DNA of 64,000 nt from Desulfovibrio ferrophilus (GTDB lineage Bacteria; Desulfobacterota; Desulfovibrionia; Desulfovibrionales; Desulfovibrionaceae), in contig NZ_AP017378.1 in NCBI RefSeq assembly GCF_003966735.1, positions 3,368,905 to 3,432,904 on the forward strand, written 5' to 3'. The translations under genes were made by a program, and so were the position numbers. Each line of letters begins with the position of its first letter. The stretch's first letter is position 1. The notes beneath the pieces were generated by a model. It worked only from the letters and a program-made list of their open reading frames with translations. It was not told the origin of the DNA and searched no databases. Shown piece after piece: positions 37,342 to 52,545 of the stretch.

Positions 37342-37466
<125 letters not shown>

Positions 37467-37487
37467 GTTTGGGGCTGAAATGGGTTT

Positions 37488-37507
37488 TGTGTCCGCTATG
37501 TGTCCGC
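37488..37507. repeat. paired TGTGTCCGC repeats, possible integrase arm sites
   Basis: TGTGTCCGC occurs twice, 11 bases apart. The same doublet is at 44788-44807, 45067-45086 and 52453-52472, always near a tRNA end or island edge. Similar short direct repeats serve as arm-type sites for tyrosine integrases; this role is inferred. Confidence 0.45.
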
Positions 37508-37526
37508 CGGTCCAAATCTGGCTGTC

Positions 37527-37649
37527 CAAATCGCTGAAAATTCCCCGCTGGCGACGTTGCTTCGTCGAATGCAAATCCTCATGTATTTGGAATACACTTC
37601 GGCCTTGCATTCGCCTCGCGTCTTGCCCGCGTGGTTTTTGAGCGATTTG
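37527..37649 (+). repeat. intergenic palindromic element, copy 6
   Basis: Outer arms CAAATCGCT (37527) and AGCGATTTG (to 37649) pair. The inner stem joins GAATGCAA to TTGCATTC around 37567-37611, with GTATT/AATAC at the tip. A truncated copy ending mid-element lies at 52492-52545. Confidence 0.75.
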
Positions 37650-37671: not shown

Positions 37672-38395
37672 TTAGGAGGCCGACCCATAATGGGCCGCTA
37701 ATATGCTATGGATAGGATTGTCTCGGGCCGCTTCAAGGTGCGAGTAGCGGTCCGTCATTCTGAGAGTCTTGTGTCCGATCATCTCCTTGGCGTGCTTGAG
37801 TGTGCCACCCGCCATGATGATGTTCGAACAGAACGTGTGCCGATTGTCGTGGAAGTGGAAGTCGGTCAGGTCCAAGTCTTTGCAAACCCGTTTCCAAGCG
37901 GTCTTGATGTCGCCCATACGGGGTCCATCCAGATGGCTGACAACGTAGTTCCCGACCACTTCGATACCCCGTGAGCTGCGCATCTTGTCGAGGTAGGCCC
38001 GCCGTTCAAGCAAGGCTTGTCGGGTTCTTGGCATGGCTGATGGTCGCCATGAGCGCATTTGCCCACTTCTTTTCCAAAGGCTTCAAGAAGGTCAGATACC
38101 CCTTTGCCGTTGTTGGGCTGAGGTCGCCTTCCTGTTCCCTGCGTTGCCATTCCTGTCTGCACAACTCCGCAACATCGCCAAAGGTCTTGCCCTTGCGCTG
38201 TTTCCGTTGCTGCCTCTTTTCCGGCATGTGTCCGTCGTCCAGAATGACCCTGAGCTTGTTTGCTTCTTGCTGCGCCAGATCACGCCGCCGAAACGAGCCG
38301 TGATACTTCTTCCGGCCCGTGTCCGGGTCGAGATACTGTACAACGTAGCTTTTACCATTCTTGCGCGAACGCGCCGCTATAGTGACTGTTGCCAT
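37672..38395 (-). pseudogene. decayed tyrosine-recombinase integrase of the island
   Basis: Two frames together resemble one phage-type integrase. The 5' part (38395 to 38006, 129 codons) has the N-terminal arm-binding start VTIAARSRKNGKSYVVQYLDPDTGRKKYHGSF and part of the core-binding domain. The 3' part (38058 to 37672) has the catalytic C-terminus: FHFHDNRHTF (H-x-x-R), MIGHKTLRMTDRYSHLE (H and the nucleophile tyrosine). They overlap in different frames, and roughly 100 residues with the first catalytic arginine are missing. A deletion with a frameshift best explains this. It is transcribed toward the tRNA. The island should no longer excise on its own. Confidence 0.85.
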
Positions 38396-38423: not shown

Positions 38424-38603
38424 TCAATTCCCTATTTGGCTGTCAATGAACCGCAGCAAATCCTTGGTTCGGATCAGCTTTCGGGAGCGTACCAGAACAC
38501 AGGGCAACTCGCCATAGTCCAGCATGCGCGAGACCGTGGCCCGATGCACCCGCAGGATGTCCGCGGCTTCCTGAATGGTGAGGAGAATTTTGTCTGAAAT
38601 CAT
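38424..38603 (-). CDS. small helix-turn-helix protein (excisionase-like)
   Basis: This 59-residue protein reads MISDKILLTIQEAADILRVH and continues RATVSRMLDYGELPCVLVRSRK. It fits the MerR/AlpA-like excisionase helix-turn-helix (DNA-binding domain, excisionase family). GGAG lies five bases before the ATG at 38603. It sits just upstream of the integrase on the same strand, the usual place for an excisionase or recombination directionality factor. It is intact although the integrase is not. Confidence 0.78.
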   Translation of the reverse strand: MISDKILLTIQEAADILRVHRATVSRMLDYGELPCVLVRSRKLIRTKDLLRFIDSQIGN

Positions 38604-39027: not shown

Positions 39028-40251
39028 TCATTCAATCCAATTTATACGAAAGTACTGTGCCTTCTCTTTGAAGCCTTTGAATTTATGAGGATTCATAGGC
39101 TCAAGATATTCTTTGACGGACCAGTTTTTTGCTAATCCGTAACGACTACTTAGCTTTGTGTGATTCGTCATTGCAGAAAGAGATTCAGAGATTAAGACCT
39201 CTTTTGCTTTGGCTTTAGAATTTAAACGGGCAGCTAGATCGACAATAGGGCCGTGAGGATCGTTTCCATAAAAAAATATAACATCACCAGCAGCTATGCT
39301 AATTTTCGATTGTATTTTGTGATTAGAATTTAAGTAGTATTTGTTGTTTGTATCCAAAAGCTCTTCTTGGATAGAGATGGCCGCTAGTATAGCCTGTTCT
39401 GGTTCATTGATTGGAAACGTAGCCATTACACAATCGCCAATATATTTTACGATAGTTCCATTGTGGCGTATAATTACTTCTGTGGCAATCTTATTATGTT
39501 TATTGCATTTGAATAGTCCTTCATGGAATCCTTCATCTTCTTTTATAGAAACAGATTCTGCAAGATCTGCAAATAAAATAATGAGGCTCTGTTGTGTCTC
39601 CTCAAAAAGACATGATATTTCTGTAGATGAATTAGCACTCATCTCGAAAGCTTTGTACGGATGCTCGAATGTTTGTCCATATGCTGTTGTGAAAACGTTT
39701 TTAGGTTTTTCTCTGGTGATCAGATGCTTGTAGTATCTAGGTATCGATTCTATTAAAAGATTGCGTTTTTCTTCGGCGATTTCAATCAATCCTCTAAAAC
39801 CACTTTTCTTTAGGTTTCCTAGGTTTGTTTTGTCTAGCATGTTGTCGAAATCATAACTGTAACCTGTTGATACAACGTTGGTTTTTTGGTGTTGTGTAAA
39901 AGCTATCATAGGGTAAGTTAGGAGGTGTTTTCTTAGGAAATTTGCAAGTTTAAACCCCGTTGGAATAAAATCTAGTTCTTCCTTGTCATTGTTCTCGTAA
40001 GATAAGAGTTTTTCTTGTTCACTTTCTAATAAAGCAAGGTCTATGAATATGCTTTTTATTTTATCGCCAGACTCAATTGACTTTTGAATTATGGAAAGGG
40101 CATTCGAAAAGTTTTCAGTTAGTTTTTTTTTGTAACTAAAATCAGATATAAGTACATATTTAAAATTAAAATCCCAGTCTTCAAGTTTTGGTATGAAGAC
40201 ATTATTTACGTAATTTGGTTCGTCATCAATTATTACAAGTGTTTCAATCAT
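39028..40251 (-). CDS. receiver-like domain fused to class III nucleotidyl cyclase
   Basis: This 407-residue protein has two domains. Residues about 1-130 look like a response-regulator receiver: the acidic pocket LVIIDDEP, a candidate phospho-acceptor aspartate in SIFIDLALLE near residue 72, and IAFTQ. Residues about 215-400 are an adenylate/guanylate cyclase catalytic domain: IILFADLAESV (metal aspartate), HNGTIVKYIGDCVMATFP (second metal aspartate and a lysine) and GPIVDLAARLNSKAKAKEVLIS. In the last motif the usual G-D-x-V-N reads G-P-I-V-D, so a base-recognition aspartate and the transition-state asparagine appear changed. Its start overlaps the upstream gene's stop by four bases. Product nucleotide is unknown. 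Confidence 0.85.
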   Translation of the reverse strand: MIETLVIIDDEPNYVNNVFIPKLEDWDFNFKYVLISDFSYKKKLTENFSNALSIIQKSIESGDKIKSIFIDLALLESEQEKLLSYENNDKEELDFIPTGFKLANFLRKHLLTYPMIAFTQHQKTNVVSTGYSYDFDNMLDKTNLGNLKKSGFRGLIEIAEEKRNLLIESIPRYYKHLITREKPKNVFTTAYGQTFEHPYKAFEMSANSSTEISCLFEETQQSLIILFADLAESVSIKEDEGFHEGLFKCNKHNKIATEVIIRHNGTIVKYIGDCVMATFPINEPEQAILAAISIQEELLDTNNKYYLNSNHKIQSKISIAAGDVIFFYGNDPHGPIVDLAARLNSKAKAKEVLISESLSAMTNHTKLSSRYGLAKNWSVKEYLEPMNPHKFKGFKEKAQYFRINWIE

Positions 40252-43200
40252 AATATCGATTCCGCCTTGTAAAATAAAATTGTTACTATTGTTTTATTTT
40301 TAATGCGCTGGCATTTCAGTCTTGCGCAGTATTTGTCTATTAATTGTTGAATTCTATGAGAGTAGTTTGTTGTTTGTGGTTCATTTTCAAATCCTGGGCC
40401 ATCATCGATGTAATGCATGTATATATATTTAGCATTCGATTTTATCACAAATTGTACTGATAAATCAGTGCAAGGTTTTAATTTTTTAATAACGTTTAAA
40501 AGTGTAGAGTGAAAGTTGTCGAGAAGTGACCTGAAAGTCTCTTCGTCTACAAATGCTTTTAATGAATTTGTGTGGATTTCTTTGTTGCTGTAATTTATTC
40601 GATGCTCGCTTTGTTTCGAATGAATAAAATCGCTCGTAATCTCATAAATATCCGAAAATAAAGACTTAATGAACTTTTTTAATATGCTTTTATCTTGCGT
40701 GATGTGATTGTTTATGCGGTCTCGGATGGCGTCCGTTGATTCGTTTTCCCATGTTTCAATAAAGTGCTCCTTTGTCACGTCTTTACTTATCAACAAATAG
40801 TTTATTGTACTGTCTAGTGTGTCAAGATCTTCTAGGAAAGATTGATCAAAGTATCCATGCTGTTCGAGTAGAGGTGAAAATAACTCAGGGTAGCTCTTGA
40901 GCGCGTTGTATATCGTATTAAAATTTTCGTTTAAGTTTGATTCATGGTGATAGTGTTTTAGTAAAAGTTTTTTATGATTTGCGTATGACAATGCTGCAAG
41001 CGAGTTGGTCCATTTAAATGATATGTCAGAGTGATTTGATCTTCCTATTTTTTTAGAGAATAAGATGTTCCAAATATCTTTAAGAGCGATAAGCTCAGGT
41101 CTTGTAAAATCATCATGGTTTTTTATTGCGTAAATGCGTGATACTTGATTCACAGCGTTTAGTATGTTGAGATAATTGAACTTCAGTTCATCGTCATCAG
41201 AGAGTAATGTTACTTGCTTGCTAATAAATTGAACACATTTAGATAGATTGTCATGTCCTATTGTTTCTTTGTTGATAAGTAGTTCAGCCATGCACTCAAG
41301 AGTTGTTGTATTTTTAATTGTGATGTGAAGTATTTCTTCAAAGTTATCGATGAAGTATTTTGAGTCAGTATGTATCAGTATGGCGATAGCGTGAGAGTTT
41401 TTCCAGTTGTTGTGCATAACTTCGATGCAGTTTTTGCACAAATTATGTTTTGTGTCTTTGTCCAGGTTGTTTAAGTATTCAGAAAAGGAGAATATTTCAA
41501 AATACAGTACCGAGAGAAGCGTTTTGAAAAGTGTTTGATTTGATGAGAAATTGTTAATTATTTGAATTATAAATTCAGTTGAATGCATGTCGTCTTGAAG
41601 TGATTTTTGAAGATGGATGCGACAGGTTAATGTTTCAATCGGAGCATGTATTGTTTTACTGGGTTTAAGTTTGTCCGTTCGATTTTTTTCAGAAGGTATT
41701 TTTTTATTTTTTTCGATACAATTCATTAAAGTATCGTTTAGCGCTCGAAGTTCGTTGCTATCAATGAGTGATTTTATTATCTTATTTTTTATACAAAGCG
41801 GGCAAGTATTGTGCTTATATTGTGGGATCGGTATATTAGCATATTCAAAAAATTCAATTTGTGTTTTATTGTATTGTTTTAAATTGCAAAATTTTATTGT
41901 GTCTTTAATTTTAGAACGATCAAGTATGACGTATATCAAGCATTTATCTGGTTCAAGGTAGCTACATGAGTGTAGTATGTTCCAGATAGTTTCTCCTGAG
42001 CTTATTGTAGAGTCAATTATTAGTATTGTTTTTATGTTTTCAAAATGGTTAGGGTTTAAGGGTGTTCCATCGTCTTTTATTTTATGTACTTCACACCCAA
42101 ATTCATCAGATATGGTGTCGGTCAAAAGTGTGATGTCTTTTGTTTCAATGTTATGAAAGACATGTGATATTTTGTCTGTTTCGTCATTAAGGTAGCTTTC
42201 TATTATGTGGGCTAGTTTGTATGTTACTATTCCACCGAATGTTTTACAAATTTTATCAATATTGAAGCAATATGGAAAATGGTTCTTGTTTTTCTCGGAT
42301 ATGTAGTGGCCCATAGCCACAGGTATGTTGTATTCGAATAGCTGGTTTACAAATTCTTCTGGTGAGATAAATGTTTCAGCTTCTGTGCTTTTAGTTATCG
42401 GTGACCAGCTTTCATTGATTTTATTGATCTCACTCCAATGCCATTGGTATGGTTTTGATTCTTTGAATAGTTCTGTAGCGTTATGATATATACATTGAGT
42501 TTCAATTGGTTGATTGTTGTTGCTATACTGTATGCTGTCTGTTGTCTTGCGTAAGTCTATAATGCTGTGAATCTTAGTTATCCTGTCACTAATGTTGCGC
42601 ATTTCTAGCTGTTGAATGACTTTTTTAATTGATTTCGAAGTGGCTATAACGTCTACTAAAATTATTATGGAATCGTAACTTCCAAGCTTGTATAGTAATA
42701 GTTTGTCTATCTCTGGTGTTGAGCTATTGATGTGGGTTATGTTGGGATTTTTGTTTTTAATGAAACTGTATAGTGAGGATCCGATTTGATCGCCAATGCT
42801 TGAGATTGATAGTATGCAAGTTGGTTTGTTTTTAGGGATTTTTATTTCGTTTGCGACTACCCGTATTAGCTGGTTTTTTAGCTCGTGTTTTCTAAATAAA
42901 GATCCAATTTCAAAAAATACGTTTGAGAACGCATTTGTTGGAAATAAGAATTTCCCATCATGTCTAATGCCATTGTCTACATTGTTTATCGCAGATATAA
43001 GTGATTTTTTTTCTCTCTCTATGATAGCATTTAACGCTGTTTCAAAACTAAATGAGAGGCCGATGGTTTTGTTTTTTCTTTTAACGAAAATATTATCCCA
43101 ATATTCAGGTATCGTCTTTATATCAATATATTCTTTGTTGATTGCTTTAATGACAGTTTCTGTGCAGTTCGATTTGTCTGAGTAATCACCTATAACTTTT

Positions 43201-44690
43201 ATATCATAATTGTATTCTTTTCTATTGATAGATATAAAAGGTCTAATGGTGTATCTTTTGTCTATACCATCCCATTCTTCAATTTCATTTAACGGCAGTA
43301 TTGTGTCGTGATGTTCGTAGTTGATTCCTATTATTTTATAATTGTCTAATCCAAGAAAATATATTTGCATAAGAAATGGATAAAGCATGTCTTTATCCCA
43401 TTCAACTTTATGAAAATCTATGCATATTATATCAGTTTTTTTACACGATTTTGTGAACTGATATAGATCGTTTACATAGAATATTGCCGATCTGTTAATT
43501 TTTGATGTGTATGGTGTGTAAAATTTCACATCATCTATTTTATTTTGTGAGTATTTTAATATATTTTCGTTTATTTGTGTGGTCTCCGCTTCTCGTAATT
43601 CTTTTAAAGGGATTAATATTTCTAAATGTACACCTGGAATTTCTCGTATTGATTTAAGTGTTCGACTTTCATTGCTTGTTTTATAGGTGCCTACATCATT
43701 TGAATAGTAATCATAACAAATATAATTTCTATCGCTTCGGCATATTACCGCTCCTCGACATTTTTTTGCTAAGTTTTTGACGAAATATAGTCCGCGAGGT
43801 GGTATGTAATTATTCCATTCCAGTTTTGAATCAGCTTCTTCTAAATTTGTCTTCTGTTTACTTGTAGAATGAAGTTCGAATGCATATTTTATTATTGCAG
43901 AGTTGGATTTGTTCGTGTTGTCAATAACGTCATCTGCATCGTAAGCCTTTCTGAGGGTTTTTACTATTCCCGGTCCTGTGTCGCTAATCACAATTTGTAA
44001 GCATTCTGAATTTCCGAGTTTTTTAAGAAATCTTCTTAGGAATTTTGGTGATTGTGCTTGTCTGTAGAGCAGGATTTTGTCAGCGATATCTGTGCTAATT
44101 TTAGGTATTAATCCTATAGCAATTTTTGCATCATTAGTGTTCTTGTTTTTTATGGTTCCGTGTTCATATGCATTTTTTCCTAGTTCTCTGATTATAATGC
44201 TCTTTATACCAGCTAAATTTGTATTTTTAATGCCAGTGTTCTCGACGGAGTATTTCAATAGACTTGATTCTAAGTTTAACTGATTAATTATATTGTTGAA
44301 TGATTCTCTGTTGAATTCTTTTAATCTCATGCATTTTTTTGGCATATAATCTTTATATTCTTTATCGTATTCTGAGAGTTTTATATCAATTCCCCTGCTC
44401 CTCAAGTAATTTAGCAGTTGGAATGAGTACATAAAGGATTCAACTCGGAGCGCCGTTTCATTATATATTTTATTAGGTCCGTTTGTGGGGCTAATTATCT
44501 GAATTTTCATTCCATTTACATTTTTGCTTATGATCCATGTCGCAAAAATGCAGAATGCATATATATCTACGTATTTCACATTTTCTAAACTAATCAAGAT
44601 GTTTGAATATTTTGCTGATTCTACTTTGTTAATAAATTGTTCAATTTCTTTAATATCTATTCTTTTGAGGCTAGTATCAAAACTTTCCAT
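40248..44690 (-). CDS. large STAS-GHKL ATPase-phosphoribosyltransferase-like protein
   Basis: This 1480-residue protein is soluble and A+T-rich in coding. Residues about 28-72 resemble a STAS domain (NILISLENVKYVDIYAFCIF). Residues about 160-330 form a GHKL ATPase: N-box IIIRELGKNAYEHG, G1 box VISDTGPGI and G2-like PPRGLYFVKNLAKKCRG. Two phosphoribosyltransferase-type PRPP loops follow: SIIILVDVIATSKSI near residue 700 and ILIIDSTISSGETI near residue 915. A C-P-L-C pair lies near residue 985 and a long helical region follows. The C-terminus has another G1-like IDDGPGFENEP near residue 1425. No histidine-kinase dimerisation domain is visible. It is the first gene of an operon with the receiver-cyclase. 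I do not recognise the full architecture. Confidence 0.8.
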   Translation of the reverse strand: MESFDTSLKRIDIKEIEQFINKVESAKYSNILISLENVKYVDIYAFCIFATWIISKNVNGMKIQIISPTNGPNKIYNETALRVESFMYSFQLLNYLRSRGIDIKLSEYDKEYKDYMPKKCMRLKEFNRESFNNIINQLNLESSLLKYSVENTGIKNTNLAGIKSIIIRELGKNAYEHGTIKNKNTNDAKIAIGLIPKISTDIADKILLYRQAQSPKFLRRFLKKLGNSECLQIVISDTGPGIVKTLRKAYDADDVIDNTNKSNSAIIKYAFELHSTSKQKTNLEEADSKLEWNNYIPPRGLYFVKNLAKKCRGAVICRSDRNYICYDYYSNDVGTYKTSNESRTLKSIREIPGVHLEILIPLKELREAETTQINENILKYSQNKIDDVKFYTPYTSKINRSAIFYVNDLYQFTKSCKKTDIICIDFHKVEWDKDMLYPFLMQIYFLGLDNYKIIGINYEHHDTILPLNEIEEWDGIDKRYTIRPFISINRKEYNYDIKVIGDYSDKSNCTETVIKAINKEYIDIKTIPEYWDNIFVKRKNKTIGLSFSFETALNAIIEREKKSLISAINNVDNGIRHDGKFLFPTNAFSNVFFEIGSLFRKHELKNQLIRVVANEIKIPKNKPTCILSISSIGDQIGSSLYSFIKNKNPNITHINSSTPEIDKLLLYKLGSYDSIIILVDVIATSKSIKKVIQQLEMRNISDRITKIHSIIDLRKTTDSIQYSNNNQPIETQCIYHNATELFKESKPYQWHWSEINKINESWSPITKSTEAETFISPEEFVNQLFEYNIPVAMGHYISEKNKNHFPYCFNIDKICKTFGGIVTYKLAHIIESYLNDETDKISHVFHNIETKDITLLTDTISDEFGCEVHKIKDDGTPLNPNHFENIKTILIIDSTISSGETIWNILHSCSYLEPDKCLIYVILDRSKIKDTIKFCNLKQYNKTQIEFFEYANIPIPQYKHNTCPLCIKNKIIKSLIDSNELRALNDTLMNCIEKNKKIPSEKNRTDKLKPSKTIHAPIETLTCRIHLQKSLQDDMHSTEFIIQIINNFSSNQTLFKTLLSVLYFEIFSFSEYLNNLDKDTKHNLCKNCIEVMHNNWKNSHAIAILIHTDSKYFIDNFEEILHITIKNTTTLECMAELLINKETIGHDNLSKCVQFISKQVTLLSDDDELKFNYLNILNAVNQVSRIYAIKNHDDFTRPELIALKDIWNILFSKKIGRSNHSDISFKWTNSLAALSYANHKKLLLKHYHHESNLNENFNTIYNALKSYPELFSPLLEQHGYFDQSFLEDLDTLDSTINYLLISKDVTKEHFIETWENESTDAIRDRINNHITQDKSILKKFIKSLFSDIYEITSDFIHSKQSEHRINYSNKEIHTNSLKAFVDEETFRSLLDNFHSTLLNVIKKLKPCTDLSVQFVIKSNAKYIYMHYIDDGPGFENEPQTTNYSHRIQQLIDKYCARLKCQRIKNKTIVTILFYKAESIL

Positions 44691-44948: not shown

Positions 44949-45045
44949 TGAATGGCATTCAAGAGGTCGTGGGTTCGATTCCCTCCAGCTCCACCACCGA
45001 TTATTCAAGGGATTCAGGTATTTGCCTGGGTCCCTTTTTTCGTGG
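44949..45045 (+). repeat. attachment site, right end of the island (attR), displaced tRNA-Ala 3' end
   Basis: Bases 44949-44996 are the 3' part of a tRNA-Ala(GGC) with T arm GTGGG-TTCGATT-CCCTC and CCA. Upstream bases do not continue the tRNA, so it is a fragment. The following terminator is conserved to 45045. The mismatches with attL (one T/C, GG/CA and CC/TG) fall in the variable loop and T stem. Confidence 0.85.
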
Positions 45046-45365
45046 TGAAGAGGCGTTTTTGGGTTTTGTGTCCGCTATGTGTCCGCTCTATGTCCGTATC
45101 CCGGTGCCGAATTGCAAATAATCATAGGAGACTGTATGCCCGGTTTACCAAAGCGAATGGATAAATTGAAATTTGCCTGAATCACTGAAAAATGACCCTC
45201 GGTATAGAAGAATGCCGTGGGTGAATCATTGGTTTTCCCTGTTTTAGGGAGTGGGATGATTTCTGACTGTCATTTTAGATGATTATCCATGGGAAGCTGA
45301 GTTGTATTCTGTCGACTTTGCCGGGTCTAAACTCTTGGCTGCACCGTCAACCGGGTAGGGAAAGT

Positions 45366-46652
45366 ATGGGCGATAACGTATTGATTCATCAGGATGTTTC
45401 TGAGGAAACCATCCTGATCGTCGAGGACAGTAGGACCATGGTGTCTCTGTTGTCTCGCGCCATACAGAAGGAATTCGGCCTGCAGGCTGTGATCTGCAGA
45501 ACTTATGCAGAGGCACAGGATCAGCTTCAGAACTCGGATCAGGTCTATTTTGCTGCGTTGCTGGATCTCAACCTACCCGACGCCCCGAATGGGGAGGTTG
45601 TTGACCTGGTTACGGGCAAGGGGATACCGGCCATCGTTTTCACGGGCGAAATGTCGGACGATTTGCGCGATATCATGTGGTCCAAGCGTATCGTGGACTA
45701 TGTGGTCAAGGACAATGTGGATAATATTCAGCAGATCATGGGCATTGCCAGACGACTCAAAGGCAATAAGGACCTCAATGTGCTTGTCGTGGACGATTCG
45801 TCTACGAGCCGGACTGTTATTAAGGATTTGTTGAAGGTTTGGAATTTTAATGTGCTGGAGGCCACAGACGGTCGCGAAGCGCTGAATATCCTTGCCAGCC
45901 ACGATAAGATCAATCTTTTGATCACCGACTATCACATGCCAAAAATTAACGGCATCGAGTTGGTTAAGGAAGTCCGGCGTAAGTTCTCAAAGTCGCGGTT
46001 GCCGATCATTGGTATTTCCGGCGTTGGCGGTGCCACCACTTCGGCCCATTTCATCAAATGCGGTGCCAACGATTACATGCACAAACCATTTCTGACCGAA
46101 GAATTGTATTGCCGGGTGATCAGCAATATTGAAACTTCGGAATATATCGCGGCTATAAAGGATCTCGCCGAGCGGGATTATTTGACGGGTATTTTCAATC
46201 GCCGTTCCTTTTTTAGTTATGGCAGTAAATTGTTTTCCAGCCACCAGCGTGGCCAGATTGAGATCGTGCTGGCGATGATCGACATTGATTGTTTCAAGGA
46301 CTGCAATGACAAGTACGGCCACAGCGCCGGTGATGAGGTTTTGAAATTCGTTGCCGAAACGCTGACGGATAGTTTTCGGGATACGGACCTTGTCGCCCGC
46401 TTCGGAGGAGAGGAATTTTGCGTGGCCTGTGTGGATCTGGCACCCGAAGAGATTGCTACGGTTTTTGAAGAAACTCGCCGCGCCATTGAAGAGGCCATTA
46501 TCAGGATTATGGATTACAAGATTCGTGTGAGCATTAGCGTCGGTGTGTGCGCCCAGCACGCGGATAGCCTTGATGGGATGATCAAGATTGCTGATGAGAT
46601 GCTTTATCAGGCCAAGAAAAATGGTCGTAATCAGGTTTGTATTGCTGACTAG
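45366..46652 (+). CDS. double-receiver diguanylate cyclase (REC-REC-GGDEF)
   Basis: This 428-residue cytoplasmic response regulator has two receiver domains (residues about 14-125 and 140-255) and a GGDEF domain (about 290-428). The first receiver has ILIVEDSRTMV and LLDLNLPDAP; the second has VLVVDDSSTS, LITDYHMPKINGIELV and a conserved lysine in YMHKPF. The cyclase active site is RFGGEEFCV, an active-type GGEEF, so it should make cyclic di-GMP. RDYLTGIFNRRSFF opens the domain. The ATG at 45366 follows AGGGAAAG; the upstream frame is not conserved-looking. It is a single gene next to the island edge. Confidence 0.94.
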   Translation: MGDNVLIHQDVSEETILIVEDSRTMVSLLSRAIQKEFGLQAVICRTYAEAQDQLQNSDQVYFAALLDLNLPDAPNGEVVDLVTGKGIPAIVFTGEMSDDLRDIMWSKRIVDYVVKDNVDNIQQIMGIARRLKGNKDLNVLVVDDSSTSRTVIKDLLKVWNFNVLEATDGREALNILASHDKINLLITDYHMPKINGIELVKEVRRKFSKSRLPIIGISGVGGATTSAHFIKCGANDYMHKPFLTEELYCRVISNIETSEYIAAIKDLAERDYLTGIFNRRSFFSYGSKLFSSHQRGQIEIVLAMIDIDCFKDCNDKYGHSAGDEVLKFVAETLTDSFRDTDLVARFGGEEFCVACVDLAPEEIATVFEETRRAIEEAIIRIMDYKIRVSISVGVCAQHADSLDGMIKIADEMLYQAKKNGRNQVCIAD

Positions 46653-52306: not shown

Positions 52307-52382
<76 letters not shown>

Positions 52383-52394
52383 CCGATTATTCAA

Positions 52395-52426
52395 GGGATT
52401 CAGGTATTTGCCTGGGTCCCTTTTTT
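52395..52426 (+). terminator. terminator after the second tRNA-Ala
   Basis: The same imperfect GGGATTCAGG/CCTGGGTCCC hairpin and six-T run as after the first tRNA. Confidence 0.75.
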
Positions 52427-52545
52427 CGTGGGTTTGGGGCTGAAATGGGTTTTGTGTCCGCTATGTGTCCGCCGGTCCAAATCTGGCTGTCCAAATCGCT
52501 GAAAATTCCCCGCTGGCGACGTTGCTTCGTCGAATGCAAATCCTC

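What the first reader, a model, noticed from the sequence alone, without database searches (positions are those of the whole stretch)
39028..44690. Two-gene STAS/GHKL/phosphoribosyltransferase plus receiver-nucleotidyl cyclase operon in a tRNA island
Seen in the sequence: a 1480-residue protein with a STAS-like start, a complete GHKL ATP site, two PRPP-loop-like segments, a Cys pair and a second G1-like box, coupled by a four-base overlap to a receiver-cyclase protein. The operon is strongly A+T-rich, has its own candidate promoter, and is the only cargo of a tRNA-Ala island with an integrase. Family knowledge: GHKL proteins can feed receivers, and cyclic-nucleotide systems such as Pycsar and CBASS are common island cargo. 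Inference: the large protein senses a cue and controls cyclase output, possibly as an antiphage or stress-response system. I do not know a described system with this pairing.
Basis: partly seen in the sequence, partly recalled or inferred. Interest (0 to 1): 0.85.

Follow-up and report, generated by a model that had tools for sequence, protein, structure and literature searches.

The report
Fused defence-candidate sensor with cyclase partner
A mobile-island operon in a bacterium encodes one giant protein that looks like two neighbouring suspected anti-phage proteins joined into one, plus an enzyme that probably makes a cyclic nucleotide signal; the pair was not found elsewhere and its job is untested.

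Summary
The two genes are real: 1480 and 407 aa, overlapping by ATGA, GC 32-34% in a 54% window, between tRNA-Ala attachment repeats. Gene 2 has a class III nucleotidyl cyclase domain over Pfam's cut-off; its receiver is motif-level only. Gene 1 had no close relative in any collection searched. A faint plasmid hit led to its likely kin: residues 1-370 are homologous to PDC-M65A, and residues 780-985 match the second phosphoribosyltransferase-like module of PDC-M65B (0/100 shuffles each), the latter depending on the rows used. PDC-M65 is a two-gene phage-defence candidate of PADLOC; four of six loci that I checked lie beside Thoeris, Lamassu, Qat or SIR2 genes. So the giant is most likely a one-chain relative of PDC-M65 with a cyclase as output. 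No effector gene lies beside it, so Pycsar is not met; CBASS is not met. The pairing recurs nowhere that I could search, the integrase is broken, no promoter stands out, and both structure predictions failed. Defence function remains inference.

The parts
40248..44690 (-). gene 1, 1480-aa STAS-like/GHKL/two-PRTase-like/helical/second G1-box protein
43596..44690 (-). residues 1-365: STAS-like start plus GHKL domain, homologous to PDC-M65A
   Evidence: hhalign of residues 1-370: 76.0 against 15.2 (sd 2.2) in shuffles, 0/100, E 4.7e-10; alignment A3
42456..43013 (-). residues 560-745: first PRTase-like module, PRPP-like loop VDVIATSK from 679
   Evidence: UPRTase 0.0037-0.0041, PRTase_2 0.05; HPT/APRT models 1e-4 and 2.4e-4; homology to M65B not shown (3/100 shuffles, 56/100)
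41817..42353 (-). residues 780-958: second PRTase-like module, loop DSTISSGET from 893, matching the second module of PDC-M65B
   Evidence: PRTase_2 9.2e-6; hhalign 32.9, 0/100 shuffles; controls and dependence on rows
41793..41804 (-). CPLC cysteine pair (residues 963-966)
40251..40700 (-). residues 1331-1480: possible second, degenerate GHKL domain with DDGPGF from 1429
   Evidence: motif only; no family match
39028..40251 (-). gene 2, 407-aa receiver-like/class III nucleotidyl cyclase
39757..40251 (-). receiver-like domain, D9 D10 / D71 / T119 / K141
   Evidence: weak: Response_reg 0.14 at residues 98-142; 7/100 shuffles; residues
39154..39600 (-). class III cyclase domain; Asp 229 and 273, Lys 269 and Asp 331, Asp 338 in place of the usual Asn, Arg 342
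   Evidence: Guanylate_cyc 5.6e-9, Ma1120 5.1e-11, alignment A9
37342..37417 (+). tRNA-Ala (GGC), insertion site
37370..37507 (+). left attachment repeat
44949..45086 (+). right attachment repeat, 89% identical to the left one
37672..38395 (-). broken tyrosine integrase (two ORFs in different frames, middle missing)
   Evidence: Phage_integrase 2.4e-12 on the C-terminal ORF only; frames
38424..38603 (-). 59-aa excisionase-like ORF (helix-turn-helix of AlpA type, by eye)
   Evidence: read from the sequence; no family search of it succeeded; family name is recalled

Best explanation
The operon is a one-chain, strongly diverged relative of the two-gene phage-defence candidate PDC-M65 (GHKL protein + two-PRTase-like protein), with a class III cyclase as a dedicated output arm. 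Shown: the STAS-GHKL half is homologous to PDC-M65A; gene 2 has a cyclase domain with the residues that are invariant in its relatives. Supported but dependent on the alignment: the second PRTase-like module is homologous to that of PDC-M65B, in the order of the M65A-M65B gene pair. Inferred: the PRTase-like modules bind a nucleotide, nucleobase or PRPP ligand whose level shifts on infection or stress; the GHKL domain uses ATP to switch state and acts on the receiver-like domain of gene 2 (by phosphorylation or direct contact); the cyclase then makes a cyclic mononucleotide, most likely cAMP, which is read by receptors of the host, since the island encodes none.
For: STAS-GHKL to M65A: hhalign E 7.8e-8 with the whole protein; 76.0 against 15.2 (sd 2.2), 0/100 shuffles, with residues 1-370. 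Second module to M65B: 32.9 against 14.6 (sd 2.0), 0/100 shuffles; reversed sequence 12.7; the 8 host PRTase-family ORFs score 15.3-22.6. The plasmid and viral relatives tested are PDC-M65A/B by PADLOC. Of 12 plasmid records with an A match, 10 also have a B match. M65 pairs lie beside QatA (L007), ThsB and dGTPase (L010), LmuA/LmuB (L014) and SIR2/PDC-S25 (L072) genes. Cyclase. Host has 16 cNMP-binding matches and 8 cyclase matches, this one included. Overlapping genes, ATGA.
Against: No second case of the pair. None of the 11 plasmid M65 loci read shows an annotated nucleotide-monophosphate cyclase beside it, though those gene tables are incomplete. PADLOC's M65 models do not hit gene 1. The module-2 link depends on the two viral-contig rows: 24.4 or 25.1 with either dropped, 21.2 with both, no better than one unrelated 529-aa control frame at 24.7; module 1 shows no significant link. 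Receiver is weak. No promoter. Structure models failed. I found no text on PDC-M65 and so no test of it.
Confidence: 0.45

Rival explanations
1. An ordinary sensory system for host physiology: gene 1 senses nucleotide or PRPP state and tunes a host cAMP-type network through gene 2; it rides an island but has nothing to do with phages.
For: No effector in the island; the host has 16 cNMP-binding matches and 8 class III cyclase matches; cyclase residues look adenine-type (rule recalled).
Against: M65 kinship and defence genes beside several M65 copies; AT-rich, island-borne, and absent from the other genomes sampled, so not a conserved housekeeping gene.
Confidence: 0.25
2. A Pycsar-like abortive system: infection triggers a pyrimidine cyclic nucleotide, and a distant host-encoded receptor kills the cell.
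For: PADLOC PycC models hit gene 2, best 2.3e-8.
Against: The generic Pfam cyclase model fits at least as well (5.6e-9); no cyclic-nucleotide receptor or effector gene in the island; Lys269 and Asp331 are the adenine-type pair (rule recalled).
Confidence: 0.1
3. A decaying passenger: the island is dead, the pair is a relict without present function.
For: Broken integrase; gene 1 found convincingly in its own genome only, among 395 genomes of the phylum sample and 348 of the class; no promoter found.
Against: Both reading frames are open over 1,887 codons; the overlap, cyclase residues and GHKL boxes are intact.
Confidence: 0.12
4. The PRTase-like modules are active enzymes that make an unusual nucleotide, and the cyclase acts on that product.
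For: Loop 2 (DSTISSGET) keeps the first Asp and a phosphate-binding-like SGET.
Against: Both loops depart from the canonical acidic pair (recalled), and in the M65B rows the acidic residues are gone from both loops (such as ISASTSG, VVAATLGSG).
Confidence: 0.08

Closest known systems
PDC-M65 (PADLOC phage-defence candidate, genes M65A and M65B)
   Same: STAS-like/GHKL protein followed by a two-PRTase-like protein; gene 1 shows homology to A and, depending on the rows used, to the second module of B, in the same order.
   Different: One 1480-aa chain instead of two genes; long C-terminal part with a second G1-like box; a CPLC pair after module 2, where many M65B rows have a CxxC between the modules; cyclase partner; not hit by the PADLOC models.
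Pycsar (PycC cyclase + receptor/effector)
   Same: Class III cyclase on a mobile island; PycC model hits.
   Different: No receptor or effector gene, an extra large partner protein, adenine-type residues.
STAS-HATPase regulators (such as those at L018, L019)
   Same: STAS-like start (by eye; STAS 0.07 for L019 only) plus HATPase_c; hit by the profile of gene 1 and M65A.
   Different: About 300 aa, no PRTase modules, different neighbours.
Receiver-linked class III adenylate cyclases
   Same: Cyclase domain of standard class III type.
   Different: The receiver is barely recognisable, and its sequence matched nothing at 29 cyclase loci read from the phylum.

Membership tests
PDC-M65 | M65A-type STAS/GHKL protein | tested here: met
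   hhalign 76.0, 0/100 shuffles; but the PADLOC model itself gives no hit
PDC-M65 | M65B-type protein with two PRTase-like modules | tested here: inconclusive
   module 2 significant with the 12-row profile but row-dependent, module 1 not; the RFNDGIIQ-type signature of M65B is not seen in gene 1 by eye
PDC-M65 | two adjacent genes detected by PADLOC models | tested here: not met
   one fused gene, no PADLOC hit at E up to 1; M65A model no match in the genome
Pycsar | class III cyclase of PycC type | tested here: inconclusive
   PycC 2.3e-8 against generic Guanylate_cyc 5.6e-9
Pycsar | cyclic-pyrimidine receptor/effector gene alongside | tested here: not met
   no such ORF in the island
Pycsar | product cUMP or cCMP | not testable with these tools
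   residues point to adenine, rule recalled
CBASS | CD-NTase | tested here: not met
   PADLOC lists no CD-NTase for either protein
Two-component system | histidine kinase with phosphoacceptor-His domain | tested here: not met
   no HisKA/Hpt-type match
Two-component system | receiver domain with Asp-Asp, phosphoacceptor Asp, Thr, Lys | tested here: inconclusive
   residues present, domain score weak

The most novel reading that the evidence does not exclude
A new type of cyclic-nucleotide immunity: a single-chain M65-type nucleotide/PRPP sensor with GHKL ATPase drives a receiver-cyclase, whose cyclic mononucleotide recruits receptors of the host rather than a dedicated suicide effector. It would join the orphan candidate PDC-M65 to second-messenger defence.
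Probability: 0.25. Interest if true: 0.82.

Novelty: new variant of a known kind. Interest (0 to 1): 0.55.

Why it matters
For PDC-M65, a defence candidate, I found no published biochemistry. A relative that is fused into one chain and tied to a cyclase suggests what the GHKL/PRTase pair may do (sense and switch) and supplies an assayable output, cyclic nucleotide production, that the plain M65 pair lacks.

Tried and rejected
Close homologues of gene 1: no convincing one in 395 phylum genomes, 348 class genomes or 17 of another class (these samples overlap), in plasmids, phages, viral contigs or GTDB contigs. The contig scans need near-exact 7-10-residue matches, so they exclude only close relatives. 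Gene 2: no viral relative; 131 plasmid records match, 0 of them over 80% of the protein; its first 213 residues alone match no plasmid.

Streptomyces plasmid cyclase (L003): shares the cyclase, but no relative of gene 1 among its neighbours. Lactobacillus hit to the C-terminus: lies among phage structural genes, E 0.4, taken as chance. Hits in G674 and G713 at E 0.05-0.07 were not followed. Receiver test by sequence and profile: weak. Solved structures: none for gene 1 at E up to 1; for its PRTase pieces three chance-level hits at E about 2 and none; one chance-level hit at 0.6 for the GHKL profile. Structure predictions: mean pLDDT 35.0 and 33.6, not used, no fold search made. First M65B comparisons with 10 rows were not significant. 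The neighbour test of 29 cyclase loci reached only about 1.5 kb each side. Paper searches for the pairing gave nothing that describes it in their listings; only open-licence PMC papers are held.
Full report
What is there. Two minus-strand genes, 40248-44690 (1480 aa) and 39028-40251 (407 aa), overlap by ATGA. They are the only sizeable cargo of an island at a tRNA-Ala gene, bounded by a 138-nt direct repeat of 89% identity. GC is 32.0% and 34.2% against 54.0% for the window. The integrase is in two frames with its middle missing by eye, so the island has probably lost self-mobility. No promoter-like site lies upstream on the right strand, and such sites in the region are no more frequent than in shuffles (20 against a mean of 26.4).

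Gene 2. A class III cyclase domain passes Pfam's curated cut-off (5.6e-9) and matches solved cyclases (Ma1120, 5.1e-11). In an alignment with 21 other cyclase fragments (20 from the phylum sample and one plasmid) D229, K269, D273 and D331 are invariant; the usual Asn is Asp at 338, and Arg is present at 342. By a recalled rule (Lys plus Asp means adenine) this favours cAMP. The first 165 residues have receiver-type residues D9, D10, D71, T119, K141 and Response_reg is the only Pfam match of the first 200, at 0.14; shuffled sequences reach the observed profile score in 7 of 100 cases. The receiver is therefore probable but not shown.

Gene 1. Whole-protein Pfam gives PRTase_2 (9.2e-6) and UPRTase (0.0037), both under their cut-offs; NCBIfam gives HPT and APRT models at 1e-4 and 2.4e-4, far under theirs. 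Gene 1 had no close relative: itself alone in 395 phylum genomes; itself plus two weak, unfollowed matches (E 0.05 and 0.07) in 348 class genomes; none in 17 of another class; none in plasmids and phages at 1e-5; none in GTDB contigs in two pattern scans.

The link. A tblastn hit of E = 3 in a Cupriavidus plasmid opened a family of gene pairs: a protein of about 390 aa and a protein of about 740 aa. Those tested match PADLOC's PDC-M65A and PDC-M65B, for instance at 4.3e-126 and 5.5e-261 in a Spirosoma plasmid. Twelve plasmid records have an A match and 10 of these also a B match; two more records have short B matches without A. I read 11 of the 12 loci: 9 have one B gene of 720-745 aa next to A, L014 has B in two adjacent ORFs, and L016 has no B match. 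Residues 1-370 of gene 1 score 76.0 against the A profile; 100 shuffles average 15.2 (sd 2.2) and none reaches it. For the B profile, the first tests with 10 rows were not significant (3 of 100 shuffles for each module). After a viral-contig scan gave two more B genes, residues 780-985 score 32.9, 0 of 100 shuffles reaching it. Three alignment methods give 32.9, 32.9 and 28.9; dropping one or both new rows lowers it to 24.4, 25.1 or 21.2; the reversed sequence gives 12.7; the 8 host PRTase-family ORFs score 15.3-22.6, and among the other frames at those loci one of 529 residues reaches 24.7, the rest 15.5 or less. Module 1 shows no significant link (56 of 100 shuffles). So the A half is firm, the second B module is good with the full profile but row-dependent, and the first rests on PRTase family models and its loop.

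GHKL status. Pfam calls no HATPase in gene 1 or in the two M65A proteins scanned, but the joint profile hits three other proteins in the phylum sample, each with HATPase_c (5.8e-6, 8.1e-9, 1.1e-15).

Defence company. I ran PADLOC on chosen neighbours at six M65 loci, four of them picked because annotation or reading looked defence-like. QatA (L007), ThsB twice and dGTPase (L010), LmuA, LmuB and PDC-S02 (L014) and SIR2/PDC-S25 (L072) came up; the two genes tried at L008 gave none; L073 gave a NERD match on the other strand beyond a recombinase. The annotation tables of L009, L013 and L015 show no obvious defence genes, so this is association, not enrichment. No paper of the library holds the word PDC-M65; one search was seen as a listing only. 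In PMC11514479 (passages seen) PDC stands for phage defence candidate. The DefensePredictor paper PMC13092281 (sections 5 and 8 and passages seen) names PRTase in a figure legend on validated systems and HATPase and REC in one on predicted systems; I could not see which systems these are, so a related system may already be drawn there. Of PMC7824862 and PMC11224242 I saw passages only.

Pairing. The gene 2 search hit 71 of 395 phylum genomes, its own included; apart from gene 2 itself no listed match began before residue 159, so only the cyclase part is shared. In 29 cyclase loci read, neither the N-terminal part of gene 2 nor gene 1 had a match within about 1.5 kb. In plasmids, 0 of 131 matching records cover 80% of gene 2. 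No annotated nucleotide-monophosphate cyclase lies beside the 11 plasmid M65 loci, whose gene tables are incomplete. The pairing is so far unique.

How it may work. The PRTase loops are off-canonical (VDVIATSK, DSTISSGET); in the M65B rows the acidic residues are gone (such as ISASTSG, VVAATLGSG). Binding rather than catalysis is my inference: PurR-type regulators are a recalled precedent for PRTase folds that sense PRPP. The GHKL domain would convert ligand state into an ATP-driven change passed to the receiver-like domain, and the cyclase would emit the signal. The island holds no receptor; the host has 16 cNMP-binding matches, so the signal may enter the host network. Every step after the homologies is inference.

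Verdict. Real, rare and unusually built; best filed as a fused, cyclase-coupled variant of an uncharacterised defence candidate, with function untested.

Noticed in passing
window 37342-37580 and 52307-52545: Two tRNA-Ala(GGC) copies with their downstream flanks are identical over 239 bp and then diverge; the second may be the scar or site of another element of the same family.
   Followed up: partly
window 45279-46652: Just outside the right repeat: a gene with two receiver stretches and a GGDEF domain.
   Followed up: no
L009, L010, L011: thyX lies directly upstream of the M65 pair in three Rhizobiaceae plasmids; a dGTPase lies downstream in L010, hinting at a nucleotide-pool theme.
   Followed up: no
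L072:1222-9498: Viral-collection contig with M65A, M65B, a 1074-aa protein with a P-loop (by eye) and a SIR2/PDC-S25 protein in a row.
   Followed up: partly
L073:5302-8701: Second viral-collection contig: an intact M65B follows what looks like a shortened M65A ORF of 268 aa.
   Followed up: no
L006:5822-7131: Two small genes (255 and 180 aa) upstream of the Cupriavidus M65 pair; the second looks PIN-like by eye; no convincing family match.
   Followed up: partly
L003:7944-9188: Streptomyces plasmid class III cyclase with a C-terminal part that looks like cold-shock domains by eye; it shares the VDLAARL stretch (Asp for the usual Asn) with gene 2.
   Followed up: no
L009:10444-12687: EAL-domain gene directly downstream of an M65 pair.
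   Followed up: no
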